Positions 1 through 21,250 of a stretch of DNA of 56,408 nucleotides are shown piece by piece. Every line of letters starts with the position of its first letter. Within the stretch, counting starts at the first letter, position 1. The notes under the pieces were generated by a model that worked only from the letters and a program-made list of their open reading frames with translations, had not been told where the DNA came from and ran no database searches. Source of the DNA: Caryophanales bacterium (GTDB taxonomy: Bacteria > Bacillota_I > Bacilli_A > RF39 > UBA660); contig JAEEKI010000002.1 in NCBI GenBank assembly GCA_016282375.1, positions 1 to 56,408 on the forward strand, given 5' to 3'. Made by a program: the position numbers and the translations under genes.

Positions 1-1700
1 GTAAATGACCAGTCGTTATCTTCATTTAGTTCAGCTTCAAGGTCATTTAACATTACTGTAATACTTTCAGGACGGGTTTCATCAGCGTTATCATTATCAA
101 CCCATTCTTTAGTTACTACGATTTCTTTTACTAAAGTGTTTGTAACTGTGTAACCATCTTCGGTTTCTTCGATTTCTGTTGTGTAATTATCTACTTCGAC
201 TTCTGAAAGTTCGTATTCAATTTCGTTACCTTCTTCATCGTAAACTGGAAGATTCTCAAACGTAAATGACCAGTCGTTATCTTCATTTAGTTCAGCTTCA
301 AGGTCATTTAACATTACGGTGATGCTGTCTGGACGAGTTTCATCAGCATTATTGCCATCGATCCATTCTTTTGTTACTACGATTTCTTTTACTAATGTAT
401 TTGTTATTATATAACCGTTTACAGTTTCTTCAATATCAGTTATATAATCTTCTACTGATACTTCAGATAACTCATATTCAATTGCATTACCATCTTCATC
501 GTAAATAGGTAAATCTTCAAATGTATATGACCAGTTATTATCGTCATTTAATTCTGCTTCTAAATCATTTAACATTACAGTAATACTACCTGGACGGGTT
601 TCATCTGCATTATTACCATCAACCCATTCTTTTGTTACTGTGATATTTTTACCAAGCGTATTGGTAATTAAATAACCGTCTTCAGTCTTCTCAATCTCTG
701 TTGTGTAATTTTCTACTTCGACTTCTGATAGTTCGTATTCGATCTCATTACCTTGTTCATCGTAAACTGGTAGGTCTTCGAATGTGTATGACCAATCGTT
801 GTCTTCATTTAGTTCAGCTTCAAGGTCATTTAACATTACTGTAATACTATCTGGACGAGTTTCATCAGCATTATTACCATCAACCCATTCTTTAGTTACT
901 ACGATTTCTTTTACTAATGTATTTGTGATTGTGTAACCATCTTCTGTTTCTTCGATTTCTGTTGTGTAATTTTCTACTTCGACTTCAGAAAGTTCGTATT
1001 CAATTTCGTTACCTTGTTCGTCATATACAGGTAAGTTTTCAAATGTATATGACCAATCATTATCTTCGTTTAGTTCAGCTTCAAGGTCATTTAGATAAAC
1101 TGTGATACTGTCTGGACGAGTTTCGTCAGCATTATCACCATCAACCCATTCTTTTGTTACAATGATGTCTTTTACTAATGTATTTGTAATTGTGTAACCG
1201 TCTTCGGTTTCTTCGATTTCTGTTGTGTAATTATCTACTGATACTTCAGATAACTCATATTCAATTGCATTACCATCTTCATCATAAATAGGTAAATCTT
1301 CAAATGTATATGACCAATCATTATCTTCGTTTAGTTCTGCTTCAATATCATTTAACATTACAGTAATACTGTCTGGTCTTGTTTCGTCAGCATTATTACC
1401 ATCAACCCATTCTTTTGTTACAATGATGTCTTTTACTAAAGTGTTTGTAATTGTATAACCATTAACTTGGTCGCCTTCAATTTCAGTTGTGTAATCATCT
1501 ACTTCAACTTCAGATAGTAAATACTCAATTGTATTTTCATCATCGTCATATACAGGTAAGTTTTCAAATGTATATGACCAACCATTTTCTTCGTTAAGTT
1601 CACCTTCGATGTCATTTAAGTATACTGTGATACTATCTGGACGAGTTTCATCAGCATTATCGCCGTCAATCCATTCTTTTGTAACAGTTACTTCAGTAGC
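1..1700 (-). repeat. Tandem 261-bp Cna-B repeats (about 6.5 units visible)
   Basis: The block encoding W-S-Y-T-F-E recurs at plus-strand bases 1, 262, 523, 784, 1045, 1306 and 1570. The period is exactly 261 bp except for the last step, which is 264 bp. Nucleotide identity is very high in blocks, and two sequence versions alternate: the units around 523 and 1306 share one version of the YDEDGNAIEYELSEVSV segment, and the others share a second. The array continues past the left edge. Confidence 0.95.
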
Positions 1701-4700
1701 AACATTTTTATTTGTAAAAATAATTGAATAAGAAGTGTTTGTATATTCAATAGTACCACTTACAGTAGGATCCACACTTTCATCTTCATTATTATCTTCA
1801 ACTTCAAAAGTATCATCAGGTGTAGTAATTGTAAGTAATGTTTTTTCTAATTCAAATTTGCTATCAATATTAGTTTCTATAATTGTGTATGTTGAATCTG
1901 TTAATAAATTCATTATACGCAAGTTCCAACCTTTTTTCATTCTTACAATAAATGTACTACCACTTGGTGCATAAAAATATGCTGTTCCGTCTTCTTGACT
2001 AGCACCTTCGACTTCAAGTCCATCATCAAAAGTTATGAAAGATGATGTTGAAGCCTTTGATTCTTTTACTGAGAACCAAATGTCATCATTATTAGGATCT
2101 TCTACAGTAATTGTAAATTCAAATAATTGATTATCAAAATGAGCAAATCCTTCATCATAATTAACTTCTTTTTCAATATCAATCCAAGTACGACGTTCAT
2201 TATAAGCTGTTAGTTCGGCAACATTAGTTTCATTTAAGTCACCAACCACATAGTAATAATTGTCAATCATGTAATATGTACCAGAATCTGGAACTTCTGT
2301 TCCTTTTTTAATTAATAGAGTTAATTCATTATTAATTAACATAGGACGAACTATTTCACTTTTAAGTTCCCAGTTATAAGTATCGCTTCCTAATTCCCCA
2401 AATGAATAGTCATGACCAGTTGCAAGAATTTCAATTGTACCATCTTGACTAACTGTCATAATACCTACAGAAATATATGATGATGCATAGAATTCATTAT
2501 CTTCATTTAATGAGATAGAATTCCATGTAGTACCATCTTGTAATACATTTAATGTTATAGGACTTGCTGTTCTATCATCTAATTCATTTTTCCACTCTTT
2601 AGAAACAGCAAACGATTGTACAGCCATCGTACTTACAGGATCTGGATTATCGTAAGATATTGTGTTTTCACCAGAATTTTCAATTCTAGTATCTGTAAAT
2701 TTTAAAATAGCTGTCGTATTTGTTTTTAATATATATTCACCATTTTCATCTGGATATAAATATTCTTGAATTGTAGCATCCAGTTCATCATAATGTTCTG
2801 GATAATTTTTTAAATCTGCAATTAAGTCTAATGTATATTGACTTGGCCATACTCTAAATGTAACTTGGTAAGTAACACCATTTAAAAGTACGCCATGACT
2901 AGATAAATTCCAGTCAACAGAATCATTTCCCTCTTCGTCAGTAACTAACTGTGCAGCGGTTGGAGCTTCTGGATGTAAATCATTACCTTCATCAGTCCAC
3001 TCCATTATAAACATTTGTTTTTCATCAATTGTTTCAATTTTACCTGTTATTGAATGATTACCATTTTTATCTGTCCATGTACCAACATAGTCATTACCAC
3101 TTTTTGTAAATGCTATTGTATTTCCTGTAGTTGAATTTGTATATGTATCGTTTTGACCTGTAACTGGTGTAACTTCCATTGAAAGATAATATTTAAATGA
3201 ATTTTCATCGATATCAAGTAGATGAACAGCACCAGTTGATGCCGTTACGGATGAAGTAGTACCATCACTAATAGAAACGGAACTAACACCCATTGCTTGA
3301 ATTACCTTTCCTAAAAGATCATTTACAGCTATCTCTAATTGAGAAGTTTCTGCAGCGTTATAATAATTAGGAGCAGACACTGTTGCAGCTGTAGGAGTTC
3401 TTTCTTCACTAGCATCTTTAAATGAATTATACATTAAGTCATCAAGTAAGTCTGCTTCTGTACCATACATATAAATACCATATAGTTCATTCTTATCTTG
3501 ATCAGTTCCTTGAATTGACTTAGCTGTAGATAAAGCAGCACTATATCGATCAATCAAAGTACTTAGAGAAGCACTTGATGGTGCAACAGCATTACTACCA
3601 TTACCAGATGCAGTTGGAGCACCATCAGTAACTAAAATAACAATAGTTTGATCATTATCATGGCCTAGAAGACCATTTGCAAGTGTTAATGCACGGTCCC
3701 AGTTTGTACCATATCCATTATATGTAAAACTTGTCCTTCCATCAGTTCCATTACTATTGAAACGATTACGAAGTGAAGTTAAATCGGTTGTCCACCCACT
3801 TACTGTATCTGCACTAACTGCAAACGTAATTAAGGCCATCTCAATATTATCGCCTTTTTGATATCCTATAAGATCATTGATGAAATTATAAACAACTGCT
3901 TCTGCTTGATCAGCACGAGAATATCCACTTGAGCCAGCATTAGATGTCATACTCTGTGATATATCATAAACAATAATAACATTAACATTAGCAGTTGTAT
4001 CACTTTCTGGAATTGAATCACCTGTAACATCTAAGGACAAAGTATATGTACCATCATGGTTGTCTGTTAAATCTTTATTATGCGCAGGATCGTCACCCGC
4101 TGGATCTGTAACCTTTATAATATAATCATTATTAATTGTATGAATAATAATTGTTTCTTCGGTTGTAAATGAATGTAAGCTCTTAATTGTATAGTCGTTA
4201 GAATTAACAACTCTATTTATACTAATGATTGAATCATCACTAGAATCAATACTTATAACATCTGATAATAAAATATCAATGTGAAGTTTTTGATTTAATT
4301 GAGATAACAATATGGTGCTACCTCCAGGTATACTAACGTGATATTCATCATGAGTAAATATAACTTCATAATTATTACCTACGTTACTATTACCTTCATT
4401 ATTATCTATATCATTTGATGTATTATCAACTGTTGTATTTTCAATAATAGGTGTTTCTTCAATAATGTTTGTTAAGTCTAATTCATTTTCATCATTTTGA
4501 ACTATTTCATTTTCTGTAATATTTGAAATAGTATTTTCTACATTATCTGTAACCTCCATTATTTCATTTTCTTTATAAACTGTTGATGGATCTTCTAATG
4601 CAAGCATTCCGCTATATTCATCATCGTGTATAAAGTCAGTAAAATCTACTATTTCATTTTCATTATCTACACTATCTAACTCTTCAGCATAAGTATTAAG

Positions 4701-4757
4701 TGTGAAAGCAAAAAGTGAAATAATAAATACTATTAAATACGTAAATATTTTTTTCAT
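1..4757 (-). CDS. Large VWA / Cna-B repeat surface adhesin (partial, C-terminus off left edge)
   Basis: At least 1,585 residues are open to base 1, so the C-terminus, where a sortase sorting signal would be expected, is not visible. Residues 1-24 form a signal peptide ending in TYA, followed by an acidic Asn/Glu-rich stretch to about residue 140. A von Willebrand A domain begins near residue 255; its MIDAS motif DISQS has Asp265, Ser267 and Ser269, with a later VTDGAP strand. Residues about 590-1010 contain further Cna-B or SpaA-like beta domains. From about residue 1020 there are 87-residue Cna-B repeats, each with Lys in VTKEW, Glu in YELSEV and Asn in TITNT, the residues that form intramolecular isopeptide bonds in this fold. 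The start follows AGGAGG inside the end of the upstream sortase gene. The likely role is a sortase-anchored adhesin or pilus tip protein. The domain calls are firm; the binding partner is unknown. Confidence 0.9.
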   Translation of the reverse strand, partial: MKKIFTYLIVFIISLFAFTLNTYAEELDSVDNENEIVDFTDFIHDDEYSGMLALEDPSTVYKENEIMEVTDNVENTISNITENEIVQNDENELDLTNIIEETPIIENTTVDNTSNDIDNNEGNSNVGNNYEVIFTHDEYHVSIPGGSTILLSQLNQKLHIDILLSDVISIDSSDDSIISINRVVNSNDYTIKSLHSFTTEETIIIHTINNDYIIKVTDPAGDDPAHNKDLTDNHDGTYTLSLDVTGDSIPESDTTANVNVIIVYDISQSMTSNAGSSGYSRADQAEAVVYNFINDLIGYQKGDNIEMALITFAVSADTVSGWTTDLTSLRNRFNSNGTDGRTSFTYNGYGTNWDRALTLANGLLGHDNDQTIVILVTDGAPTASGNGSNAVAPSSASLSTLIDRYSAALSTAKSIQGTDQDKNELYGIYMYGTEADLLDDLMYNSFKDASEERTPTAATVSAPNYYNAAETSQLEIAVNDLLGKVIQAMGVSSVSISDGTTSSVTASTGAVHLLDIDENSFKYYLSMEVTPVTGQNDTYTNSTTGNTIAFTKSGNDYVGTWTDKNGNHSITGKIETIDEKQMFIMEWTDEGNDLHPEAPTAAQLVTDEEGNDSVDWNLSSHGVLLNGVTYQVTFRVWPSQYTLDLIADLKNYPEHYDELDATIQEYLYPDENGEYILKTNTTAILKFTDTRIENSGENTISYDNPDPVSTMAVQSFAVSKEWKNELDDRTASPITLNVLQDGTTWNSISLNEDNEFYASSYISVGIMTVSQDGTIEILATGHDYSFGELGSDTYNWELKSEIVRPMLINNELTLLIKKGTEVPDSGTYYMIDNYYYVVGDLNETNVAELTAYNERRTWIDIEKEVNYDEGFAHFDNQLFEFTITVEDPNNDDIWFSVKESKASTSSFITFDDGLEVEGASQEDGTAYFYAPSGSTFIVRMKKGWNLRIMNLLTDSTYTIIETNIDSKFELEKTLLTITTPDDTFEVEDNNEDESVDPTVSGTIEYTNTSYSIIFTNKNVATEVTVTKEWIDGDNADETRPDSITVYLNDIEGELNEENGWSYTFENLPVYDDDENTIEYLLSEVEVDDYTTEIEGDQVNGYTITNTLVKDIIVTKEWVDGNNADETRPDSITVMLNDIEAELNEDNDWSYTFEDLPIYDEDGNAIEYELSEVSVDNYTTEIEETEDGYTITNTLVKDIIVTKEWVDGDNADETRPDSITVYLNDLEAELNEDNDWSYTFENLPVYDEQGNEIEYELSEVEVENYTTEIEETEDGYTITNTLVKEIVVTKEWVDGNNADETRPDSITVMLNDLEAELNEDNDWSYTFEDLPVYDEQGNEIEYELSEVEVENYTTEIEKTEDGYLITNTLGKNITVTKEWVDGNNADETRPGSITVMLNDLEAELNDDNNWSYTFEDLPIYDEDGNAIEYELSEVSVEDYITDIEETVNGYIITNTLVKEIVVTKEWIDGNNADETRPDSITVMLNDLEAELNEDNDWSFTFENLPVYDEEGNEIEYELSEVEVDNYTTEIEETEDGYTVTNTLVKEIVVTKEWVDNDNADETRPESITVMLNDLEAELNEDNDWSF

Positions 4758-4761
4758 ATTT

Positions 4762-5496
4762 TTAATCGACCCTCCTAGCGATTATTAATAAATATTTTTT
4801 ATTGTAGTTTGCATATTCGTTTTTAAAACTACATGTTTGTAAAATTAAAATATTATCATTTGGTGATATCTCTTCACCGGTATCATAAAACGATCTATTT
4901 TTTAAATCATTAAAGTGATTATATTTTTCTTCATCATCTTTAAAATCTAAATTCATATAATCCCAGTTTTCAGTTTCAACATAAACCGAAAATATTTTAT
5001 ATCGCCATGCATGCTGTTCCGTTATTAAGTCTATATATTTATGATTAAGATAAAAATCTTCATCATAATAATTTTCTAATTCTTTAAAAGGAACATCATA
5101 CGTATCTGAGTTGTGACCATATATTAAAAGTTTAGATGATGAGTTGATATTCACTCGGTAATCTAAAAATGGATTACCACGGACATCTCTCTCACCGTAT
5201 ATATTATTAATTAAATACTTATTGTTATCAGTTGCTTGTGTAACAAGTACTTTTAAATTTGTATCATTTATTTTTAAAAGACCAACAATGTCTTTATTTT
5301 CATATTCATTTCTTATCCTAATAAAATCATTCGGTGAATAATAATCAAGGCTTTCTATATTATAAGCTATAAGATTAGGAGATAAAGCATTTACTTTGTT
5401 CAACTTGACCAGTAGATCACTATTATAGATGCTTCCAACTATCAGTATGCCAGATAGTGCAAGTAAACAACTAATTAAAAAACTTCGTTGCTTCAT
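4762..5496 (-). CDS. Class B sortase
   Basis: This 244-residue membrane-anchored transpeptidase would join sorting-signal proteins to the cell wall or to each other outside the membrane. Residues 6-24 are an N-terminal membrane anchor. The catalytic triad is visible as His128 (YGHNSD), Cys222 (LQTCSF) and Arg241 (IARR), with the spacing and C-terminal TC motif of sortase B. The open frame extends 31 codons further upstream through a TA repeat, but ATG at 5496 follows AAAGGAG at good spacing and starts a proper signal anchor, so it is chosen. The gene ends 4 bp before the VWA/Cna-B adhesin, which is its obvious candidate substrate. The AGG-AGG codons of Arg241-Arg242 also form the Shine-Dalgarno of the adhesin. 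A strong promoter lies at 5616-5644. Confidence 0.92.
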   Translation of the reverse strand: MKQRSFLISCLLALSGILIVGSIYNSDLLVKLNKVNALSPNLIAYNIESLDYYSPNDFIRIRNEYENKDIVGLLKINDTNLKVLVTQATDNNKYLINNIYGERDVRGNPFLDYRVNINSSSKLLIYGHNSDTYDVPFKELENYYDEDFYLNHKYIDLITEQHAWRYKIFSVYVETENWDYMNLDFKDDEEKYNHFNDLKNRSFYDTGEEISPNDNILILQTCSFKNEYANYNKKYLLIIARRVD

Positions 5497-5518
5497 ATTA
5501 ACTCCTTTCTTTATACCC

Positions 5519-5541
5519 TTATATATATATATATATATATT
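5519..5541. repeat. TA dinucleotide tract in the sortase leader
   Basis: About ten uninterrupted TA units lie in the untranslated leader between the sortase promoter (5616-5644) and its ribosome site. Such tracts can change length by slippage, and this one can also fold on itself. Confidence 0.85.
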
Positions 5542-5615
5542 GTAAGAATTACCAATTATATGATTTCCGGTTAAACCAAAAATACGCACAAAAAAATTTT
5601 AACGAATTTGCTTTT

Positions 5616-5644
5616 ATATTAATCAAACCAATACTAAAAGTCAA
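5616..5644 (-). promoter_or_regulatory. Promoter of the sortase-adhesin operon
   Basis: Reading the minus strand, TTGACT (5639-5644) is followed after exactly 17 bases by TAATAT (5616-5621). This predicts a leader of roughly 110 nt before the sortase start at 5496. Confidence 0.75.
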
Positions 5645-5839
5645 CAACATTTACATCATTTTTACAGTATCAATATTGTAGACTGTAATCGGACCAAAAA
5701 GGACTTAGTCTAATTTGTCACAGTATCAAAGTTATAATCAAATGACTAGTGCTTCAAGAACAAGTCATAAAAATAGGTAGAAGATATCTTAGATAAATTA
5801 TATACCATCATATAGGCATTATTCCGGGGGGTGGTTATT

Positions 5840-5902
5840 ATGGTAATTTTGTTTTTTTGCCTTTATTTCTATAATGTTTTAAGAAATCACCCCCGAAATT
5901 AA
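5840..5902 (+). CDS. Candidate 20-residue hydrophobic mini-protein (type I toxin-like layout)
   Basis: The frame starts at ATG 5840 and encodes 20 residues: a Phe/Leu/Tyr-rich hydrophobic half (MVILFFCLYFY) and a basic tail (RNHPRN). A perfect-spacing Shine-Dalgarno, GGGGGGTG, lies 6 nt upstream and can pair with the 16S tail over eight positions using G-U pairs. The last codons contain CACCCCCGAA, complementary to that Shine-Dalgarno and its flanks apart from two bulges, so the full-length RNA could close its own ribosome site. A hairpin terminator follows at 5912-5945. The layout matches type I toxin mRNAs, but no known family is recognised and no clear promoter is visible. It may be chance. 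Confidence 0.35.
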   Translation: MVILFFCLYFYNVLRNHPRN

Positions 5903-5911
5903 TGTGCAAAA

Positions 5912-5945
5912 AAAATTTACAAGTACTTTGTAAATTTTTCTTCTT
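5912..5945. terminator. Bidirectional hairpin terminator
   Basis: A stem of AAATTTACAA with TTGTAAATTT around a 5-base loop carries T-rich sequence on both sides. On the minus strand it ends the Ig-like stalk gene; on the plus strand it would end a transcript covering the mini-ORF at 5840. Confidence 0.7.
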
Positions 5946-5948
5946 TCA

Positions 5949-8423
5949 TTAATCACCGTTTGATGGAACTGTTGGTTCTGTAGTTTCAATTATATTCTCT
6001 ATAACAATATCTACTTCAGTACCATTACCTACTAGGTCAAATACAATAACACTTTCTGTAGTATTTTCTGTATATGTGTTTGAAATAGTTACATCATCAA
6101 CTTTATTCCATCCTTCAACTTCATCGATTGGTTCATCAGATGTTATGGTAACTGTTACTTCTTCAACTGGTTCAGTTTCTTCACTATAAGTTACTTCCAA
6201 AGCTGGAGCAGTTTTATCTATATTTGTAATCTCAACATGAGCAGTAGTAGTTTCTCCATTTAAACTACTAACCGTAATATCCTCTTCAACATTATCAGTA
6301 TATATATGAACATATGTAGTTTCATCAACAATGTTCCAATCAACTATTGGTTCAATTTCTTCGCTTGCTGTAATCCTTACAAGCACATCTTCATTAGTTG
6401 GTTCAGTTGTACTGTATGTAACATTAGCAGTTAATGATGAAACTACTATGTTAGAAATTGCTATATTAACATCTGTACTATTACCTGCTAGATCACTAAT
6501 GCTAATTACTTCAGACGTATTTTCTGCATATACTTTTGTTAATGTTGTAGCATTTGCTTTTGTCCATCCTTCTAATTCTGCAATTTCTTCATTTGCAGTT
6601 AGCGTAACTGTAACACTATCGTTTGTTTCATCAGTCGGAGCATAAGTTACCTCGATAGCTGGAGCTTCACGATCTATATTTATAACGCTAATATTTATTA
6701 TTGTAGAATTACCAACTAAGTCATTGATAACTATTTCTTCATAGTCAATGATTTCAGAAGTTTCTGTATCAATCGTTACTTCGGTAATTGTATTTTCACT
6801 ATACACTTTTGTATATGTTTTCTCATCTACTTTATTCCAACCTTCTAACTCAACAATTTCCTCATTTGCAGTTATCGTAACTGTTACATCACTATTAGTT
6901 GGATCAGTCGTGCTATATGTTACTTCAACTTCTGGTACTTCTTTGTCAATATTACCAATGACAATTTCGACATTGGCTGTATTACCTGCTAAGTCCGTAA
7001 TTGTTATTGTATCATTAGCGTTACCTTCATATTCTTTTGTGTATGTCACAGCATCTACACTCGTCCAACCATCAAGTGGAGTTATTTCTTCACTTGCTAC
7101 TAATGTCGCAGTAACATTTTCATTTGTCATGTCAGTTGGTTGATATGTTACTGTTGCTTCTGGCACAACTTTATCTATATTATTAATCACAATATTTGCT
7201 GATGCAGTATTACCTGCTATATCAGTAACGTTAACTGTTTCTTCAGCATTAGCCTCATATGTCTTAGTATAAGTTAATGAGTCAATATTAGTCCATCCAT
7301 CTAAACCTTGAACAACTTCACTAGTGGTTAATGTAACTATGACATTTTGATTTGTCATATCCGTTGTACTATAACTAACACTTAGTACAGGACTAGTCTT
7401 ATCGACAATCACATTTATTGTTGTACTTCTAGAAGTTAAATCAATAGCTGTTATTGTATAAATGCCATCTTTATCAAGAGTGAAACTTGCACCTTCCTCG
7501 GAATCTTCTTTTGTTGAATCATTATGTACGCTTACTTTATCAAGAGTCAAATCATCAACAACAATATTCAGATTACTATTTACTATAGTGTTATCTTCAA
7601 CATTAAATATCGGTGCTGTCGTATCCACAATAAAGGAAATACTAACTTCATTAAAAGCATCGTCTACTACTGTTAATGAATAAGTTCCTTCATCTAGCTC
7701 ATCGCCACTCGTAAAATCTATTACTTCTCCATTCTTAGTTAACTCAGCTGTATAATCATTGTCGTCTGTAATCTCTACAACTGTCTTTTCACTTAGAATA
7801 GCTCCATCTTCAATATTTACTTCTGGAGGAGTATTATCCTTTAAAAGATTACTTAACTCCTCGTATTTTTCTTGAAGTTGTTCTTTTAAATCTTCATTAG
7901 TTAATTCAGCTATTTTATCAGCTATGTTATTTTCTTCATCATATGATCTTGCTTGATCTAAATCTTCTTTACTTTCTGATAAACCTAACTTTTCTTCTAA
8001 CTCGTCAAGAAGATTACTAACCTCAATTGCATTTTTAATCTCTTCTAAACGTTTAGATAATTCTTCTTTCTTTTTGACATCAGTAACTTGATTAACAAGA
8101 TTTTGGGCATTTGTCAAAGAAGTATTATCTAATTTTGATTCTGCATCATTTACTGCTGATAAGGCTTCATTGTATGAATTATCAATTACTTGTACTGGTG
8201 CAGGCGTATAAGCAGTTTGATTAGACACACCATTATCAACAGGTTTTTCATCATTATCATCTTTAGTTGTATTAGTTGTCTTATTAACTGTATTTGTATT
8301 AGTATTGTTATTTGTATTATTATCATCGTCTTTATGACCTTTACCAAAAACCAACCCTAATATAAGTAAAGCTAAAAGTATTAATACAATAATTGTTATA
8401 ATGATGCCTTTCTTATTTTTCAT
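5949..8423 (-). CDS. Membrane-anchored Ig-like repeat stalk protein
   Basis: The protein has 824 residues. Residues 8-27 are an N-terminal membrane segment without a clear cleavage site, followed by an Asn/Thr-rich linker to about residue 75. Residues about 75-195 are rich in Glu, Lys and Leu and look helical or coiled-coil. From about residue 200 there are bacterial Ig-like beta domains (DDTTAPIF-type motifs), then about six units of roughly 75 residues marked by YSTTDPTN, TANEEI, EGW, YTK and DLAGNS. The C-terminus (TVPSNGD) has no sorting signal, so it is probably held by the N-terminal helix and extends outward. ATG follows AGGAGG. It has its own promoter and terminator and sits between the sortase pair and the peptidase-like gene. 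Its ligand is unknown. Confidence 0.85.
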   Translation of the reverse strand: MKNKKGIIITIIVLILLALLILGLVFGKGHKDDDNNTNNNTNTNTVNKTTNTTKDDNDEKPVDNGVSNQTAYTPAPVQVIDNSYNEALSAVNDAESKLDNTSLTNAQNLVNQVTDVKKKEELSKRLEEIKNAIEVSNLLDELEEKLGLSESKEDLDQARSYDEENNIADKIAELTNEDLKEQLQEKYEELSNLLKDNTPPEVNIEDGAILSEKTVVEITDDNDYTAELTKNGEVIDFTSGDELDEGTYSLTVVDDAFNEVSISFIVDTTAPIFNVEDNTIVNSNLNIVVDDLTLDKVSVHNDSTKEDSEEGASFTLDKDGIYTITAIDLTSRSTTINVIVDKTSPVLSVSYSTTDMTNQNVIVTLTTSEVVQGLDGWTNIDSLTYTKTYEANAEETVNVTDIAGNTASANIVINNIDKVVPEATVTYQPTDMTNENVTATLVASEEITPLDGWTSVDAVTYTKEYEGNANDTITITDLAGNTANVEIVIGNIDKEVPEVEVTYSTTDPTNSDVTVTITANEEIVELEGWNKVDEKTYTKVYSENTITEVTIDTETSEIIDYEEIVINDLVGNSTIINISVINIDREAPAIEVTYAPTDETNDSVTVTLTANEEIAELEGWTKANATTLTKVYAENTSEVISISDLAGNSTDVNIAISNIVVSSLTANVTYSTTEPTNEDVLVRITASEEIEPIVDWNIVDETTYVHIYTDNVEEDITVSSLNGETTTAHVEITNIDKTAPALEVTYSEETEPVEEVTVTITSDEPIDEVEGWNKVDDVTISNTYTENTTESVIVFDLVGNGTEVDIVIENIIETTEPTVPSNGD

Positions 8424-8490
8424 ATAAACCTCCTAAATAATAATTTAGAAAAGGTATAGACGACATACCCTTTTATCTAAACTTAGTCTC

Positions 8491-8519
8491 ATTATAAAAA
8501 AAATATCGAATTTTGTCCA
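8491..8519 (-). promoter_or_regulatory. Promoter of the Ig-like stalk gene
   Basis: On the minus strand TGGACA (8514-8519) is separated by 17 bases from a perfect TATAAT (8491-8496), about 70 nt before the start codon. Confidence 0.7.
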
Positions 8520-8557
8520 TGCTTTACATGTAAATTCGACACTTTAAAAATCTATAA

Positions 8558-9079
8558 TTAATAATTTTTAATGATACCAATTTTATTAAGCGGCCATATT
8601 CGTACAACGGCTTTACCGAAGATATCTTCCTTCTCAATTAAGCCTACGCTTTCATCGCGGCTATCAAAAGAATGAAGACGATTATCGCTTAAGATAAAGT
8701 ACATATTCTCAGGTATTTTCTCTATGATATAATCTTCAGTATTTTCCTTCTTTAAATAAAACTCATCAATATGTTCATCATTAACATACAACTTACCATC
8801 TTTAAATTCTATTTTTTCACCAGGCAATCCTACTACCCGACCAATCAAATAACTAGGATTCTTATAAAAGAAAGTAACCACGTCACCTCGTTTAATATCA
8901 TTAAATCGATAAGATAGTTTATCAATTAAGATCCAGTCATCTTTTTCTAATGTTGGACTCATATATGTATACTTGTTTTCTTTTACTCCTAAAACAAACA
9001 TGTATATTCCTATCAAGACTAATACAAAAAGCACACACTTAATTGCATTAATAATAAATTTTATTAAACCTGTAATCAT
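8558..9079 (-). CDS. Signal peptidase I-like protein lacking the catalytic Ser-Lys dyad
   Basis: This 173-residue S26-family protein has an N-terminal membrane helix (residues about 9-31) and the conserved boxes of type I signal peptidase: YMSPTL, KRGDVV, GRVVGLPGE, and SDNRLHSFDSRDESVG. In active enzymes these read SMxPTL and KRVxGxPG. Here the Ser position is Tyr39 and the Lys position is Gly80, both confirmed from the codons. It should therefore be unable to cleave. Known precedents are staphylococcal SpsA and the streptococcal pilus chaperone SipA, which has Asp and Gly at these positions. Lying beside a class B sortase and a Cna-B adhesin, a SipA-like assembly role is a reasonable inference. 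ATG follows AGGAG. Confidence 0.88.
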   Translation of the reverse strand: MITGLIKFIINAIKCVLFVLVLIGIYMFVLGVKENKYTYMSPTLEKDDWILIDKLSYRFNDIKRGDVVTFFYKNPSYLIGRVVGLPGEKIEFKDGKLYVNDEHIDEFYLKKENTEDYIIEKIPENMYFILSDNRLHSFDSRDESVGLIEKEDIFGKAVVRIWPLNKIGIIKNY

Positions 9080-9170: not shown

Positions 9171-9515
9171 TATACAAATATGCGTCTAAATATATTTTAT
9201 GCATCAATTATATTTAAACGTTTACACCTTTATGGATTTTGACTTATCCATACTCACTACTTGCTATTTGAAGATATTGTGACGGTTAATGAGCTTAACA
9301 CTTCATAATTCATATTCAAACATAATCCTACCTTAAGTTTTATATTATTAATATCACTACTAATAATATATAGCGCTAAAACTAAACTTGAATACTGTTA
9401 ACTAATCATAAAATGCTAAGGGTGTACCTTCAAATTAAGCACTATAATATTTCTATTATAATACCTAATCTTGTTACAGAATAAATATCGGTACTTTCAT
9501 ATCTATATTTTTCTT
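9144..9515 (-). ncRNA. Candidate structured non-coding RNA of unknown class
   Basis: The 535-bp gap between the peptidase-like and ttcA-like genes has no coding frame of note but is full of strong inverted repeats. In minus-strand order they are a 13-bp stem capped by a GAAA tetraloop (9437-9465), a perfect 10-bp stem (9341-9370) closed again outside by AAGTTT/AAACTT (9384-9389 with 9335-9340), a TATGGAT/ATCCATA hairpin (9231-9252), a 12-bp stem with one G-U (9183-9220), and the terminator at 9144-9170. A TATAAT lies at 9522-9527. The GNRA loop and the final terminator favour the minus strand. It does not match tmRNA, SRP RNA, RNase P RNA or 6S RNA as far as can be judged by eye. Confidence 0.45.
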
Positions 9516-9614
9516 ATAACAATTATATACTATCATAATATTATAATAATGTCTACCCTTTTTTGATAATTTTTTTTAAAAATTTTTTTGATTGTCAAAT
9601 TTTGTCAAACGCAT

Positions 9615-10463
9615 CTAGAACTTATCTAGAAAACTAGTATATTCTCCATCTTGTTTATAGCCCAATACACAGTTAAGATTAACATTATTAAGCGAGGTAA
9701 AAATATTGTTATCTACATCAGGATTTATCTCCCGTAAATTAGCAATTAATTCTTTAATTTCTTTTCTTTTACTCGTATTAATATTTTTTATTTGATTGTC
9801 GTGAACGAACTTACATGCACAATTAATAAACTCTAAATTGTTACTTTTAACCCAGGCTTGAATTGCGTTTTCTTTGACAAGATATAATGGTCTAATTAAA
9901 TCAATACCTGGAAAGTTCTCACTATGTAATTTTGGTAACATGGTTTTTACTTCTGAACCGTAGAACATAGAAAGTAATGTAGTCTCAATAACATCATTAA
10001 AGTGATGACCTAAAGCAATTTTGTTGCAACCTAATTTTTGGGCGTAATCATATAGATAACCACGTCGCATCCTAGCACATAAATAACAAGGGCTTTTTTG
10101 GGCTATTGCATCTACCGAAGCAAAAATATCTGATGCAAAGATTTCTAATGGAATATTTAAAAGTTTAGCATTGTTTTCTATCTTTTCGCGATTTACTTGA
10201 TTGTAACCTGGATCCATTGTTACGTAGAATGCCTCAAAATGAATTTTTCCATGTTTTTTAATTTCTTGAATACATTTAGCTAGTAAAAAAGAATCTTTAC
10301 CCCCGGAAATACAAACCATAATTTTATCGTCTTCCTCGATTAAATTATAATCAGTTACAGCTTTCGTAAATTTTCGCCAAATATCTTTTCGAAATTTTTT
10401 AATAATACTTCTTTCAATCTCTTTATATTCTTCCATAATATACATCGCTTTCTTTTTCTTCAT
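9615..10463 (-). CDS. ttcA: TtcA-family tRNA 2-thiolation enzyme
   Basis: A PP-loop ATPase of 282 residues that would activate a tRNA cytidine by adenylation and insert sulfur. The PP-loop SGGKDS is at residues 53-58. A CxxC pair (Cys126 and Cys129, PCYLC) is followed by the family signature RMRRGYLYDYA, and ALGHHFNDVIET matches the TtcA core. Further cysteines at 215 and 217 could serve as the third iron-sulfur or catalytic thiol. The start is uncertain: there is no clear Shine-Dalgarno, a TATAAT lies just upstream of the first ATG, and Met7 (10445) or Met10 (10436) are alternatives. The family call is good; the exact tRNA position modified is inferred. Confidence 0.8.
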   Translation of the reverse strand: MKKKKAMYIMEEYKEIERSIIKKFRKDIWRKFTKAVTDYNLIEEDDKIMVCISGGKDSFLLAKCIQEIKKHGKIHFEAFYVTMDPGYNQVNREKIENNAKLLNIPLEIFASDIFASVDAIAQKSPCYLCARMRRGYLYDYAQKLGCNKIALGHHFNDVIETTLLSMFYGSEVKTMLPKLHSENFPGIDLIRPLYLVKENAIQAWVKSNNLEFINCACKFVHDNQIKNINTSKRKEIKELIANLREINPDVDNNIFTSLNNVNLNCVLGYKQDGEYTSFLDKF

Positions 10464-14503: not shown

Positions 14504-15640
14504 TTAATCTAAATAGTCACAGGCTACTTGACCATTGACGTATATATTACATGTTGGTGAGTTAATAGAACTGTCACCAAAATTTGAACATCTCAACATA
14601 CCATCAGTATACAAACTACAATTAAATAAAGTGCTTGTACAGCCAACACCAAAAGGATAACTATTGCAATCAACATCACTAATACCAGCATCAATAAACG
14701 CTTGATACATCGCCTGTTCGGCGCTTGTCAGTTGTTCACTTGTAAAATCGCTATTCAATGTATGACCTTCAAGTCCATATTGCGTATATGGCTGTGATAA
14801 ACATACTTCATGATTGTTTCCATCATTGCCACACAAATAATATTTACTATCGTCTTGACCGATATATACATTAAACCCTGTATCTAATCCATTTGTTTGC
14901 AATGTACCCCCATAATCAGGAAACGTACAATGACTATAGAACGTACAAGTATTTGGATAGTCGTTCCAATAAGATAATGTAGGCTTAACTTTCCCACTTA
15001 CGCATGAGACATTGGCAACTTTAAATCTACCGGAATATGTTTTGCCTGATAATGCACTTTGATCAGCATCTATGTTAATAAAAGTACTGATAATATGCCA
15101 TACAGCGGTACTTGTTGTACTGCCTATTCCACTAATTTGGGCGCCACTAACCACAACGGCACTATTTTGATTGCCGACTAAATCAGCCAAATCAATGCCA
15201 GGAAAACCAGAAGCATAATTCATTCCCTGATTTACATTGTTATTTGGTTCTAAATCCATAAAAACACCAAATTCATAATCAGTGATACCTGGTGAATGAG
15301 TCGTATATCGATCGGTACTTGTCCATTCATAGATAATATCATAGGAACACACCATACTATAATCCGTATTCGGTGTAAAGTTAACCGTTAAAGTAGTATC
15401 GTTTCCGGCCGCTACATTACCTTGTTTAGCTTCCACCATATTGGCGGCCGTTACATTAAGAAATATTTCTCCGCCTATTACATCAAACACCATATTATTA
15501 CGTTCTGTTACGGTATTGGCATTGGCTACATTTGTTATATTCATATTACCTGTTGCAAAGTATGCGTACGTTGCAAAGGTAACTATGGCAAATAATGTAA
15601 TAATGGTTATCGCAATTAATACTATATTATTCTTTTTCAT
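14504..15640 (-). CDS. Modular secreted protein, TasA/SipW-type N-terminus (modules N + C)
   Basis: The protein has 378 residues. Residues 5-28 are a hydrophobic signal ending in ATYAYF, the pattern of signal peptides cut by SipW-type peptidase (as in TasA and camelysin). Residues about 30-210 form module N, recognised by ERNNMVFD, LNVTAANM, QGNVAA, NFTPNTDYS, YEWTS, TSTAVWH and RFKVANVSC. The C-terminal module has YIGQD, EVCLSQPYTQYGL, GHT, DFTSEQ, YQAFIDAGI and then paired cysteines in a tail of about 60 residues. Module N is shared with genes at 20603 and 28843 and module C with 28843. It is a stand-alone gene with its own promoter and terminator. The role is unknown; an extracellular fibre or surface lectin is possible. 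Confidence 0.75.
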   Translation of the reverse strand: MKKNNIVLIAITIITLFAIVTFATYAYFATGNMNITNVANANTVTERNNMVFDVIGGEIFLNVTAANMVEAKQGNVAAGNDTTLTVNFTPNTDYSMVCSYDIIYEWTSTDRYTTHSPGITDYEFGVFMDLEPNNNVNQGMNYASGFPGIDLADLVGNQNSAVVVSGAQISGIGSTTSTAVWHIISTFINIDADQSALSGKTYSGRFKVANVSCVSGKVKPTLSYWNDYPNTCTFYSHCTFPDYGGTLQTNGLDTGFNVYIGQDDSKYYLCGNDGNNHEVCLSQPYTQYGLEGHTLNSDFTSEQLTSAEQAMYQAFIDAGISDVDCNSYPFGVGCTSTLFNCSLYTDGMLRCSNFGDSSINSPTCNIYVNGQVACDYLD

Positions 15641-15694: not shown

Positions 15695-16564
15695 TTATTT
15701 TCTTGGCATACTTTTTAAATATACTTCTTTTAAATAATCGCTCGTTATATGCGTATAAACTTCCGTTGTTTTAAGACTGCTGTGCCCAAGCAGTTCTTGA
15801 ACAGATTTGATATCCGCACCATAGTTTAATAAATGCGTTGCAAAGGTATGTCTAAATGTATGGGGTGTAACATTGTTTTTTACTGCCGAACTAAGAGCCA
15901 GTTTATCAATTATTTTTTCAATCCCCCGTACCGTTATTTTATTACCTTGATTATTTAAAATCAAATATTCTTGATTACTATTACGTACTTCCAAATACTT
16001 ATTTAATATACTTTCCGCATATTCACCATAATAAACAATTCTTTCTTTTTTACCCTTACCAAAGACACGAATACTTTTATCATTAAAATTAATATTATCA
16101 AGTTTTAAATTAACCAGTTCGGATACCCGCATACCAGTTGAATATAATAATTCGATAATTAATTTATTACGGATATTTAATATACTATCTTCCGGAATAC
16201 TATCATATATTTGTCGGTATTCTTCATATGATAAAAAATTAGGTAATTTTTTTTCTAGTTTAGGATTACTAATTAATTTAAAAATATTATGCGTTATTTC
16301 TTTTTGCTCGATTAGAAAATCATAATAACTTCTTAAACTACTTAAGATTAAACTAATACTGCGATTCGTATAGTTTTCACTATCGAGATATTTTAAATAA
16401 TCAATTAACTCATCTTTATTTAGTTTATCAAAAGATAATTTATTTACCTTTAAATAATTAAAAAACTGAGTTATATGAATGATATAATTCTTAATAGTAT
16501 ACTCAGAATAATTTAATTCATATTTTAAATAATCTTGGTATTTATTCAAATGCTTATCAATCAT
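15695..16564 (-). CDS. Tyrosine recombinase XerC/XerD
   Basis: A 289-residue site-specific recombinase with the full catalytic set: Arg146 (STGMRVSEL), Lys170 (FGKGKKER), His235 and Arg238 (PHTFRHTFATHL), His261 (LLGHSS) and the nucleophile Tyr270 (TTEVYTHI). The N-terminal SAM-like DNA-binding domain covers about residues 1-100. Length and architecture are typical of the chromosomal XerC/XerD resolvases that separate chromosome dimers, and no mobile-element genes adjoin it. Whether it corresponds to XerC or XerD cannot be decided from one copy. Confidence 0.93.
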   Translation of the reverse strand: MIDKHLNKYQDYLKYELNYSEYTIKNYIIHITQFFNYLKVNKLSFDKLNKDELIDYLKYLDSENYTNRSISLILSSLRSYYDFLIEQKEITHNIFKLISNPKLEKKLPNFLSYEEYRQIYDSIPEDSILNIRNKLIIELLYSTGMRVSELVNLKLDNINFNDKSIRVFGKGKKERIVYYGEYAESILNKYLEVRNSNQEYLILNNQGNKITVRGIEKIIDKLALSSAVKNNVTPHTFRHTFATHLLNYGADIKSVQELLGHSSLKTTEVYTHITSDYLKEVYLKSMPRK

Positions 16565-16607
16565 TATAACCCTACTTTCTAAAGAAAGTATAACATTAAT
16601 AAAATAA

Positions 16608-16636
16608 AAAAATCAATCTTCCGATTGATTATTCTT
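16608..16636 (-). terminator. Terminator after rpmF
   Basis: AATCAATC / GATTGATT stem with a GGAA loop followed by seven T on the minus strand; it overlaps the rpmF stop codon. Confidence 0.8.
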
Positions 16637-16814
16637 CATTTTCAGTTTTAAGTACTGCTTTACCTTTATAGTTACCACACTTTGTACATGCTCTATGAGG
16701 TCTAATTGTTGCACCACATTTTGAACAAGTTGTTAAAGCACCTACTTCTTTCTTAAGATGAGTTCTTCTCATCCTCTTTTTTGTTTTACTAGTTCTTCGA
16801 AAAGGAACTGCCAT
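16629..16814 (-). CDS. rpmF: Ribosomal protein L32
   Basis: A 61-residue protein starting MAVPFRRTSKTKKRMRRTH, the L32 N-terminus, with a zinc ribbon CSKCG ... CTKCG. It lies 2 bp after the yceD-like gene, the usual bacterial pairing; AAGGTGGTG inside the end of that gene is its ribosome site. A terminator follows at once. Confidence 0.97.
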   Translation of the reverse strand: MAVPFRRTSKTKKRMRRTHLKKEVGALTTCSKCGATIRPHRACTKCGNYKGKAVLKTENEE

Positions 16815-16816
16815 TT

Positions 16817-17284
16817 TTATTCACCACCTTTATTATAATAGTCGTATAACTTTTGCATCCGAGGATCAATTTCATCCTCTTTGTCATTATTCGTTATTAC
16901 TTGCCAATTATCACCTTTTAAATTATCAGCATCACTTTTAGTATATCTAATTGGCATCTCCAATACAATATTTTGCCATAAAAGTTCCATAATATCAAGC
17001 ATATTTTGCGTATTTATACAGTTTTCTGGTATAACATCATCGATTGTAAAACTAAAATCATAGTCAACATTTTCAAGTGTAACAGCATCAGTTAAAACCA
17101 TTTTACCTTTTACATCTAAAGATGCCATATATTCATCAACTTCATTTTGATATAAGAAGCCATTAACCTCTACTCCATTAAGTTGTTTAATTTCGCTATT
17201 GGCAAGATATTCTTTGGGATAGTCAATTATCTCATTAACCTCAATTTTATCTTTATAATTTAATGTACCTAAATTAATTTGCAT
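16817..17284 (-). CDS. YceD-family (DUF177) protein
   Basis: A 155-residue protein in the invariant position directly upstream of rpmF. It shows the weak family pattern of an acidic beta-rich first half (VDYDFSFTIDDVIPENC) and an ILELLWQNIVLEMPIRY segment corresponding to the conserved L-LP-P motif. The family is linked to 23S rRNA accumulation in plants and bacteria. The conserved Cys pair seen in many members is absent here. Confidence 0.8.
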   Translation of the reverse strand: MQINLGTLNYKDKIEVNEIIDYPKEYLANSEIKQLNGVEVNGFLYQNEVDEYMASLDVKGKMVLTDAVTLENVDYDFSFTIDDVIPENCINTQNMLDIMELLWQNIVLEMPIRYTKSDADNLKGDNWQVITNNDKEDEIDPRMQKLYDYYNKGGE

Positions 17285-17326
17285 ACTTTCTTACCTTTCT
17301 TAATTATTCTATCATAACTAGTTATT

Positions 17327-19114
17327 TTAATCCATGGCTCTTTTAAACATTTTTTCTAAGTCATAAATAGTAAACTTAATAATCGTAGGTCTTCCATGGG
17401 GACAGTTATATGGATTATCACATTTAACTAATTCATCAAGAATATATTCCATTTCTTCGAAAGAAATATGATGATTAGCTTTAATACTCATTTTACATGC
17501 TAAAGTAATAGCTATTTTTTCTTCGAAACGAACACGATCAAACTTATCTTCGAGAGTTAAAATTAAATCAATAATCTTACGAATGCTTTCTTCCTCATAT
17601 CCTTCCTTTAACCAAGTGGGATGTGACTTAACAACAATCGTATTAATACCAAATTCTTCGATATCAATATTGAGGGATTCTAAAACATCTTTTTTAGTCA
17701 TAAGTTTGAGATAATCACTTGATGACATTTCAATGGTTATTGGTATTAACATATTAACTTTTGCTACATCTTTTTCTTTTAAACGTTTCATATATCTTTC
17801 GTAGTTAATTCTTTCATAGGCAGCATGTTGATCAAGAAGGTAAATACCATCTTCATTTTCGGCAATAATATATGTACCATGAGCAAGTCCAACAGGATAT
17901 AATTTTAAACTTTTTAGTTCAGCATTATGCTCAGTACTTTGTGTACCTAAATCCATAAATATTTGTTCATTTTTTTCTTCCTTTTGTATGACGGGAGTGA
18001 TAATTTCATTACGCTGTTCTTCTTCCTTAAAAGGCAAATCATTATCACTATTTTCGAACGGCAAGTGTTCTTCACTAACACGTGATTCGATACTTGCAAA
18101 CTCGGTGGTTTCCATTGGCTTCATAATTAATAAATTTTGATATAAAGCATCTTTTAAAGTATTCGTTATTAACTCACATAAATCTTTTATTTTTGATATT
18201 TTAACATCTTGTTTTGTCGGATGAATATTGACATCGACAATTGTCGGATCCATCTCTATTTTAAGAACAATAATAGGATATTTATTAACTGGTTTATACG
18301 TATAATACGCATCGTTAATTGCGTTATTAATATCGTTATTACGAACGACCCGATTATTGATATAAGTCATCATATAATTGCGATTAGCTCTTAAGATATG
18401 GGGTTTGCAGGCATAACCAGTAATTTCAAAGTCGTCGGTAACTGCTCTGAACTCTAACATATTGGTAGAAATTTCCATTCCAAATATCTCATGGATGGTT
18501 TTTAATAAATTATTAGAGCCGCTTGTCTTAACTAAAACTTTTTCATCATTAGTTAGAGTAAAAGAAATGTCTGGTTTTGATAATGCAAGTTTTTCAATAA
18601 AGGCTGTACAATTATACAACTCAGTATTTTCACTTTTTAAATATTTTAATCTCGCGGGGGTGTTATAAAAAATATTAGATACTTCGATTTCTGTTCCTTG
18701 CCTTTCAGGGCAGTTCTCAACTTCTAAAATTTCTCCACCTTTTAAGTGAATGTAAGTTGACTCTTTTCCATTGAAAGTTGCCATCTTGATTTCGGACACC
18801 GAAGCGATAGATGCAAGTGCCTCCCCCCGGAATCCTAAAGTGTCGATAAAATATAAATCTTCTTCTTTATAAATTTTACTCGTAGCATGACGTAAAAAAG
18901 CTTTCTTAGCATCTTCCCGATCCATGCCACTTCCATCATCTGTAACCGTTAAGGATTCCATTCCGGCTTTTACCAAATCCACTGTAATATGCTTACTACC
19001 AGCATCGATACTATTTTCGACTAATTCCTTGACCACGGAGGCAATTCTTTCTATTACTTCACCAGCCGCTATCTTATTAGCAAGGAGTTCATCCATTACT
19101 TTAATCTTGCTCAT
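17327..19114 (-). CDS. mutL: DNA mismatch repair protein MutL
   Basis: A 595-residue GHKL ATPase and endonuclease that links mismatch recognition to strand removal. N-terminal motifs are IAAGEVIERIASVVKELVEN, DDGSGM, HATSKI, and TLGFRGEAL; the transducer contains NNRVV and DVNIHPTK. The C-terminal domain has LDQHAAYERI (the DQHAxxE-type endonuclease metal motif), ACKMSIKANHHI and the CPHGRPT motif, so this is the nicking type found in bacteria without MutH. The start codon overlaps the stop of yqeH as ATGA. No mutS is present in the window. Confidence 0.97.
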   Translation of the reverse strand: MSKIKVMDELLANKIAAGEVIERIASVVKELVENSIDAGSKHITVDLVKAGMESLTVTDDGSGMDREDAKKAFLRHATSKIYKEEDLYFIDTLGFRGEALASIASVSEIKMATFNGKESTYIHLKGGEILEVENCPERQGTEIEVSNIFYNTPARLKYLKSENTELYNCTAFIEKLALSKPDISFTLTNDEKVLVKTSGSNNLLKTIHEIFGMEISTNMLEFRAVTDDFEITGYACKPHILRANRNYMMTYINNRVVRNNDINNAINDAYYTYKPVNKYPIIVLKIEMDPTIVDVNIHPTKQDVKISKIKDLCELITNTLKDALYQNLLIMKPMETTEFASIESRVSEEHLPFENSDNDLPFKEEEQRNEIITPVIQKEEKNEQIFMDLGTQSTEHNAELKSLKLYPVGLAHGTYIIAENEDGIYLLDQHAAYERINYERYMKRLKEKDVAKVNMLIPITIEMSSSDYLKLMTKKDVLESLNIDIEEFGINTIVVKSHPTWLKEGYEEESIRKIIDLILTLEDKFDRVRFEEKIAITLACKMSIKANHHISFEEMEYILDELVKCDNPYNCPHGRPTIIKFTIYDLEKMFKRAMD

Positions 19115-20602: not shown

Positions 20603-21250
20603 TTATTTAGTAATACTACCTTTAGTACACTCCACATTTGCTATTCTAAATTGACCCATGTAGTTTTTACCATAGTGTTCATCTTGATTAGCATTAACGT
20701 TATAGAAAGTACTTTTTAAATTCCATATAGCAGTAGATGTTTCTTCACCCTTGCCATCTATTTGGGCACCAATAACAACTTTACGAGATGGCAAATCGCC
20801 AATGACATCAGCCAGATCTATTTCATCTTTGATAAAGTTTTCTCCCTCTGTAACGTGTATGTTATTAGTAAGAGTAGCCTGCATAGTATATTCTTTCTCT
20901 GTTACACCATCAGAATGAATTTCATAACGGTCTTCACTTACCCAATCATATACAATATCATAACTACATACAACGCTATAATTCGTATTTGGAGTAAAAC
21001 TAATGACAATATTAGCACTATCTTCAGCCGCGATGGAACCACTGTTGGACAGTGCCATATTCTCAATATTTACAATAAGTTTCATCTTACCACCCATGGT
21101 ATAAAAGACCATATTATCCTTTTCTAACGGGGAATTAAAATCAGCAATACTTGCAAATTCCTCTGTTACAAAGTAAGCATAAGTAGATATTGTAATAACA
21201 GATAATAATGTCATAACAAATATGATTATAAATATAATATTCCTTTTCAT
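20603..21250 (-). CDS. Secreted protein consisting of module N alone (TasA/SipW-type signal)
   Basis: The protein has 215 residues. The signal helix (residues about 4-25) ends STYAYF like its paralogues. The rest is one copy of module N: EKDNMVF, GSIAAEDS, SFTPNTNYSVVCSYDIVYDW, VTEKEYT, TSTAIWNLKSTFYNV and GQFRIANVEC. It ends about where the other family members continue into further domains, so it is the minimal member. Two cysteines probably pair within the domain. It has its own promoter and terminator and sits between polC and yqeG. The function is unknown; a TasA-like fibre subunit is a possibility based only on the signal-peptide type. Confidence 0.72.
   Translation of the reverse strand: MKRNIIFIIIFVMTLLSVITISTYAYFVTEEFASIADFNSPLEKDNMVFYTMGGKMKLIVNIENMALSNSGSIAAEDSANIVISFTPNTNYSVVCSYDIVYDWVSEDRYEIHSDGVTEKEYTMQATLTNNIHVTEGENFIKDEIDLADVIGDLPSRKVVIGAQIDGKGEETSTAIWNLKSTFYNVNANQDEHYGKNYMGQFRIANVECTKGSITK

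What the first reader, a model, noticed from the sequence alone, without database searches (positions are those of the whole stretch)
1..9079. Pilus-like locus: class B sortase, VWA/Cna-B adhesin, Ig-like stalk and a peptidase-dead SipA-like protein
The sortase has its full His-Cys-Arg triad and starts the transcript of the giant VWA/Cna-B protein. Within 9 kb there is a signal-peptidase-like protein with both catalytic residues replaced. In streptococcal FCT pilus islands a class B sortase builds the pilus and the catalytically dead SipA acts as chaperone. Finding the same unusual trio in a reduced gut-type Bacilli genome, with an N-terminally anchored Ig-repeat stalk in place of an obvious backbone pilin, suggests an undescribed surface-assembly system.
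Basis: partly seen in the sequence, partly recalled or inferred. Interest (0 to 1): 0.72.

Follow-up and report, generated by a model that had tools for sequence, protein, structure and literature searches.

The report
Sortase adhesin beside a dead peptidase
Two separate cell-surface gene sets lie side by side in an uncultured gut-type bacterium: an ordinary enzyme-plus-adhesin pair that glues a giant sticky protein to the cell wall, and a stalk protein whose usual signal-cutting partner enzyme has lost its active site yet is still preserved by selection, so this is not a streptococcal-style pilus island although the preserved dead enzyme is unusual.

Summary
The window holds a class B sortase with an intact triad, a VWA/Cna-B adhesin running off the left edge, an Ig-like stalk, and a signal peptidase I homologue with both catalytic residues replaced (Ser39Tyr, Lys80Gly). 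The adhesin's missing end is on contig C11 (72-base exact overlap) and carries a PPHTG sorting signal.

The FCT-pilus reading is not supported as a system. Across a large family of uncultured Bacilli, the sortase recurs with one neighbouring surface protein, usually with a (P/A)PxTG-like signal, and no peptidase near it (0 of 24 loci). Separately, the stalk recurs next to a catalytically intact signal peptidase, with a cleavage motif ending in Phe-Ala (31 of 31 stalks). The window's stalk lacks that motif and its peptidase is dead, so enzyme and site were lost together.

The dead peptidase is not simple decay. One orthologue, in a sister genome at the same locus, is also dead (clade support 100/99), shares two derived active-site changes and is under purifying selection. 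It is closer to ordinary signal peptidases than to SipA, so its likeness to SipA is convergent. Most likely it is a non-catalytic binding protein whose client, stalk or sortase-anchored adhesin, is undecided.

The parts
1..4757 (-). N-terminal 1585 residues of the VWA/Cna-B adhesin (continues on contig C11; C-terminus ...GTIEPPHTGIETK-hydrophobic-KRKAYIKM)
   Evidence: intact orthologue with PPHTG and the same synteny in G004 (L043:3662-7612)
4765..5496 (-). class B sortase, 243-244 aa, His/Cys/Arg triad intact (the ORF listed as 4762-5589 has an upstream spurious start)
5905..5942 (-). 15-bp hairpin followed by U-run between stalk and sortase, terminator-like
   Evidence: z = -5.3, 0 of 200 shuffles fold as well; not listed by the simple scan
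5949..8423 (-). Ig-like stalk, 824 aa, N-terminal hydrophobic segment without the family's Phe-Ala cleavage motif (LGLVFGKGH)
8480..8550 (-). hairpin plus U-run between peptidase and stalk (terminator-like), overlapped by an 11-of-12 sigma-70-like promoter (8519-8491) for the stalk
8558..9079 (-). signal peptidase I homologue, 173 aa, catalytically dead: Ser39->Tyr, Lys80->Gly, GDNR->SDNR at 131; fold predicted intact

Best explanation
Two independent surface modules are neighbours. Module 1 is a one-enzyme, one-substrate cassette: the class B sortase cuts the PPHTG signal of its adjacent VWA/Cna-B adhesin and attaches it covalently to the cell wall, where the Cna-B repeats act as an isopeptide-stiffened stalk carrying the VWA head. 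Presence, order and sorting signal are shown; cutting and anchoring are inferred from the families. Module 2 is an Ig-like stalk with its own dedicated signal peptidase I. Family-wide the peptidase is active-site intact and the stalk carries a [S/T/V/A]-Phe-Ala cleavage site (pairing shown; cleavage inferred). In this lineage the peptidase lost its catalytic residues, and in the window the stalk lost its cleavage site. The stalk therefore most likely stays in the membrane by its uncleaved N-terminal anchor. The dead peptidase is kept by selection as a membrane-bound non-catalytic protein, probably binding the N-terminal region of an exported surface protein during its assembly. Which protein it binds, the stalk or the sortase-anchored adhesin, is not settled.
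For: Sortase plus one adjacent surface protein recurs in unrelated chromosomal neighbourhoods of many genera, with PPQTG, PPYTG, PPVTG, PPNTG, PPKTD or APNTG-like ends and no peptidase. Genus members G001 and G005 have such sortases but no stalk-type peptidase; G003 has both, on different contigs, with a live peptidase. Stalk next to a live peptidase in 31 distinct loci, every stalk with ...FA; window LVFG. Dead pair: one clade, 100/99, inside the stalk-type peptidases; four columns invariant in 37 live homologues (G37, S39, K80, G131) are lost in both dead proteins while most other conserved positions are kept; pN 0.31 against pS 0.73, codon position differences 0.40/0.23/0.56. Fold intact, pLDDT 92.6, best structural match the live SpsB, then SipA. 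Separate transcription units.
Against: In G004 the dead peptidase has no stalk beside it, while G004's stalk has its own live peptidase 11 kb away. What the two dead-peptidase loci share is the sortase-adhesin cassette and ttcA, not the stalk. V-F-G could still be a poor cleavage site for the housekeeping enzyme. Part of the inferred constraint could date from before catalysis was lost, although the shared Ser->Tyr and Gly->Ser changes argue otherwise. The genome is 85% complete, so a live second copy could be missing. The C11-window join lies inside repeats, supported by the overlap and by G004 synteny.
Confidence: 0.68

Rival explanations
1. SipA-like assembly factor, independently evolved: the dead peptidase acts as membrane chaperone that presents the adhesin's signal or sorting region to the class B sortase, so that all four genes form one surface-assembly locus.
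For: Both genomes with the dead peptidase have the orthologous srtB-adhesin cassette at the same locus. The replacements parallel those published for SipA: Lys->Gly and loss of the invariant Gly next to the catalytic Lys (Gly272->Asn in SipA, GDNR->SDNR here) (PMC4049620). SipA-using FCT pili are those that use a class B sortase.
Against: 0 of 24 other srtB loci have any peptidase. Distance is 3.1 kb with two terminator-like hairpins in the window, and 5.9 kb with five other genes between in G004. No backbone pilin. SipA scores only 28.5 bits against 80.4 for a live enzyme. The cleft strand beta-1 is degraded, whereas SipA's cleft is conserved. It is one evolutionary event.
Confidence: 0.25
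2. Simple decay: after a gene-pair duplication the redundant peptidase copy lost catalysis and is on its way to a pseudogene; nothing depends on it.
For: Active site and the adjoining beta-1 strand are the most changed parts. Long stem branch, 0.62. G004 keeps a live paralogue.
Against: Intact ORF in two genomes at 51% protein identity; pN/pS well below 1 with second codon positions most conserved; shared derived residues date the loss before the split; fold predicted intact.
Confidence: 0.15
3. The sortase polymerises the adhesin itself into a covalent fibre rather than anchoring monomers, as reported for the AbpA-SrtB pair of oral streptococci.
For: One sortase with one adjacent adhesin is the AbpA-SrtB arrangement, and SrtB made AbpA ladders (PMC4974636). 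Cna-B domains are typical of pilins.
Against: No second sortase substrate or base pilin at the locus. The closest motif analogue, C. difficile SrtB with (S/P)PXTG, is described as a wall-anchoring sortase (PMC4155245). Not testable from sequence.
Confidence: 0.15

Closest known systems
Clostridioides difficile SrtB with (S/P)PXTG wall proteins
   Same: class B sortase, PPxTG-type signal, wall adhesins
   Different: here one sortase has one adjacent giant substrate; the genome carries further sortases beside NPNTG and VPETG proteins
AbpA-SrtB locus of oral streptococci
   Same: adjacent adhesin and cognate class B sortase as a conserved pair
   Different: different adhesin architecture and sorting signal
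Streptococcus pyogenes FCT-2/3/4 pilus island with SipA/LepA
   Same: class B sortase, Cna-B protein and a dead signal peptidase homologue within a few kb; Lys->Gly and loss of the Gly next to the catalytic Lys
   Different: no backbone pilin, no shared operon, peptidase not orthologous, cleft strand changed, peptidase's usual partner is another protein
Signal peptidase I (S26), e.g. SpsB, SipS
   Same: fold, N-terminal anchor, box E DNR...DSR; closest relatives are live enzymes
   Different: both catalytic residues replaced

Membership tests
FCT-type SipA-dependent pilus island | major (backbone) pilin with its own sorting signal in the operon | tested here: not met
   only one protein with a sorting signal at the locus; Cna_B matches in this genome only in the adhesin; SpaA-domain family PF17802 only a sub-threshold match elsewhere in the genome
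FCT-type SipA-dependent pilus island | class B sortase encoded with its substrate | tested here: met
   substrate starts about 7 bases after the sortase
FCT-type SipA-dependent pilus island | dead signal peptidase homologue in the same operon as sortase and pilin | tested here: not met
   separate unit in the window; 5.9 kb and five other genes away in G004; absent from 24 other srtB loci
SipA/LepA protein | both catalytic residues of signal peptidase I replaced | tested here: met
   Ser39Tyr, Lys80Gly
SipA/LepA protein | sequence kinship to SipA over live signal peptidases | tested here: not met
   4n31 28.5 bits, 4k8w 26.4 bits, against 80.4 bits for live 4nv4; tree places it inside local live enzymes (no SipA in that tree)
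SipA/LepA protein | peptide-binding cleft conserved | tested here: not met
   strand before residue 39: 4 of 9 conserved columns kept, against 8 of 9 in the live paralogue; strand around residue 80 mostly kept, 10 of 13; SipA reference
SipA/LepA protein | required for sortase-dependent polymerisation | not testable with these tools
   needs experiment
Class B sortase | sortase fold signature with His-Cys-Arg triad | tested here: met
   PF04203 over cut-off, SrtB structures as best matches; below the TIGR03064 equivalog cut-off
Sortase-anchored adhesin | signal peptide, adhesive head, repeats, C-terminal sorting signal | tested here: met
   VWA, Cna_B; PPHTG, hydrophobic stretch and basic tail; anchoring itself not tested
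Signal peptidase I, active enzyme | Ser-Lys dyad | tested here: not met

The most novel reading that the evidence does not exclude
A second, independent origin of a SipA-type non-catalytic signal peptidase recruited as an assembly factor beside a class B sortase, derived from a dedicated stalk-processing peptidase whose substrate lost its cleavage site in the window's lineage.
Probability: 0.25. Interest if true: 0.65.

Novelty: new variant of a known kind. Interest (0 to 1): 0.4.

Why it matters
How SipA helps class B sortases build pili is unsolved, and binding experiments have failed (PMC4049620). An unrelated pseudo-peptidase that arose from a live enzyme with a recognisable substrate, with live and dead paralogues side by side in one genome (G004), would let the step from cutting to mere binding be tested directly. 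The family-wide stalk plus dedicated-peptidase pair is also a simple, testable enzyme-substrate pair in bacteria known almost only from metagenomes.

Tried and rejected
(2) Genome-contig scan with the dead protein alone: no relatives; repeated with an alignment. (3) SipA orthology: rejected. (4) Conserved sortase-peptidase linkage: rejected. (5) Backbone pilin elsewhere in the genome: PF17802 gave only a sub-threshold match. (6) RNA regulators in the window: no Rfam match. (7) Literature on inactive signal peptidases with sortases: nothing beyond the streptococcal SipA work. (8) dS between the two dead copies is near saturation, so the selection argument rests on pN/pS and codon-position contrasts.

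Full report
Check of the observation. The sortase is class B by NCBIfam and by its solved relatives, with its triad intact. The adhesin has one VWA domain, DUF7604 and a run of Cna-B repeats. The 173-residue protein is an unmistakable signal peptidase I homologue, with Tyr in place of the catalytic Ser (residue 39), Gly in place of the catalytic Lys (residue 80) and Ser in place of the invariant Gly of box E (residue 131).

The missing end of the adhesin. The window is the left end of contig C19 of an 85%-complete, 1.08-Mb genome. Only one other contig, C11, has Cna-B domains. Its right end overlaps the window's first 72 bases exactly, and the reading frame continues to a C-terminus with PPHTG, a hydrophobic stretch and a basic tail. 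In genus member G004 the gene is uninterrupted: 1316 residues, PPHTG, followed by the same ftsI-type gene and mraY, and preceded by the sortase. The repeat count in the window's organism is unresolved because the contig break lies inside repeats. PPxTG is the motif type cleaved by C. difficile SrtB (PMC4155245).

Module 1, sortase plus one substrate. A family-wide search (145 genomes, nearly all from different genera) found close relatives of the sortase. I read the surroundings of 24 such loci. Most have one adjacent large surface protein, clear sorting signals being PPQTG, PPYTG, PPVTG, PPNTG, PPKTD, APNTG or APNTA; a few others have degenerate or cut-off ends. The surrounding genes are mostly unrelated housekeeping genes that differ between loci. 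None has a signal peptidase in the stretch read (flanks of up to 10 kb, shorter at contig ends). Within the genus, G001 and G005 have the sortase but only the housekeeping peptidase.

Module 2, stalk plus dedicated peptidase. The housekeeping signal peptidase of these genomes lies next to rplS and is intact, in this genome too (L042). A second type forms its own part of the tree and sits immediately upstream of a protein with a short basic N-terminus, a hydrophobic segment, a low-complexity linker, a helical segment and Ig-like repeats. In 31 distinct loci the hydrophobic segment ends in Phe-Ala, mostly FTFANP, FVFANP or FSFANP, as expected for signal peptidase cleavage, and all 31 neighbouring peptidases have Ser and Lys. 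The window's stalk is an orthologue (42% to G004's over 748 residues) but reads LGLVFGKGH there.

The dead peptidase. Among about 145 distinct homologues only three lack the dyad: the window's, G004's syntenic copy next to ttcA, and an unrelated one in Hominisplanchenecus faecis. The first two form a clade with full support inside the stalk-type enzymes of this genus and near relatives, and share Ser->Tyr and Gly->Ser. Four columns invariant in 37 live relatives are lost in both; most other conserved columns are kept. pN 0.31 against pS 0.73 and codon-position differences of 0.40/0.23/0.56 show constraint, looser than in neighbouring genes. The predicted fold is confident and matches SpsB first, SipA next. 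So it is a conserved pseudo-enzyme, not a SipA orthologue. In SipA the equivalent positions are Asp, Gly and Asn, and the cleft is conserved (PMC4049620); here the cleft strand beta-1 is not.

How the two modules relate. In G004 the stalk has a live peptidase at another site, between an xer gene and rpmF/yceD/mutL. The window has the flanking xer, yceD and mutL genes (15695-19114) but no stalk or peptidase between them. Inference: the pair was duplicated in the ancestor of G000 and G004; copy A lost catalysis; the window kept A with its stalk, and G004 kept B plus an orphan A peptidase. That orphan still lies beside the sortase-adhesin cassette, which is why a SipA-like role cannot be dismissed. 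Hairpins followed by U-runs separate the three units in the window.

Conclusion. Ordinary sortase-adhesin cassette (well supported); dedicated stalk-peptidase pair (new as far as I could find, pairing well supported, cleavage inferred); dead peptidase maintained as a binding protein (constraint shown, function inferred). The organism is an uncultured member of the Bacilli; named hits of the family-level searches are mostly 'uncultured Bacilli bacterium' MAGs, several named for rabbit or ruminant gut sources. Order RF39 is my guess, not a tool result.

A side result that may matter more than the finding. Beside the adhesin's C-terminus, the ftsI/spoVD-type gene is split exactly at the codons of its catalytic SxxK motif by a serine-recombinase element with an 11-base direct repeat at the junctions. 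Six relatives of that recombinase abut the same motif in other genera, and others abut a DacA-type TTK motif or the SCN motif.

Noticed in passing
L038 (contig C11:9000-21113): gene halves 2143-3177 and 9252-10151, element between, recombinase 7422-9071, all minus strand; relatives in L247-L252, L254-L256: A serine-recombinase element of about 6 kb splits an ftsI/spoVD-type penicillin-binding protein gene exactly at its catalytic STFK motif, with an 11-base direct repeat (ACTTTTAAAAT) at both junctions; excision would restore the frame. Six recombinase relatives in other genera abut the same codons (L247-L252), two others abut a DacA-type TTKIMTA motif (L254, L256) and one the SCN region of the first gene (L255), suggesting an element family aimed at active-site codons of penicillin-binding proteins.
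   Followed up: partly
window 14504-15640, 20603-21250, 28843-31212, 40011-41477 (minus strand): Several large secreted proteins share an N-terminus of the type MKKNNIVLIAITIITLFAIVTFATYAYF..., like SipW-dependent (TasA-type) signal sequences; similar genes occur elsewhere in the genome (L040, L041).
   Followed up: no
L039 6675-8270 (contig C16): A 531-539-residue two-part sortase (long N-terminal region plus sortase domain) beside type VII secretion-like genes and a VPETG protein; sortase matches in open frames of about 510-565 aa are frequent across the family.
   Followed up: no
window about 5515-5540: A run of about ten AT dinucleotides lies just upstream of the sortase's ribosome-binding site; a possible slippage tract.
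   Followed up: no
L219 8414-9079 (+), Hominisplanchenecus faecis: An independent signal peptidase I homologue with Ser->Ala and Lys->Arg, upstream of an intact copy.
   Followed up: no
L040 6342-8361 (contig C21): A further sortase next to an NPNTG-ended surface protein, so several sortases of this genome seem to have their own neighbouring substrate.
   Followed up: no
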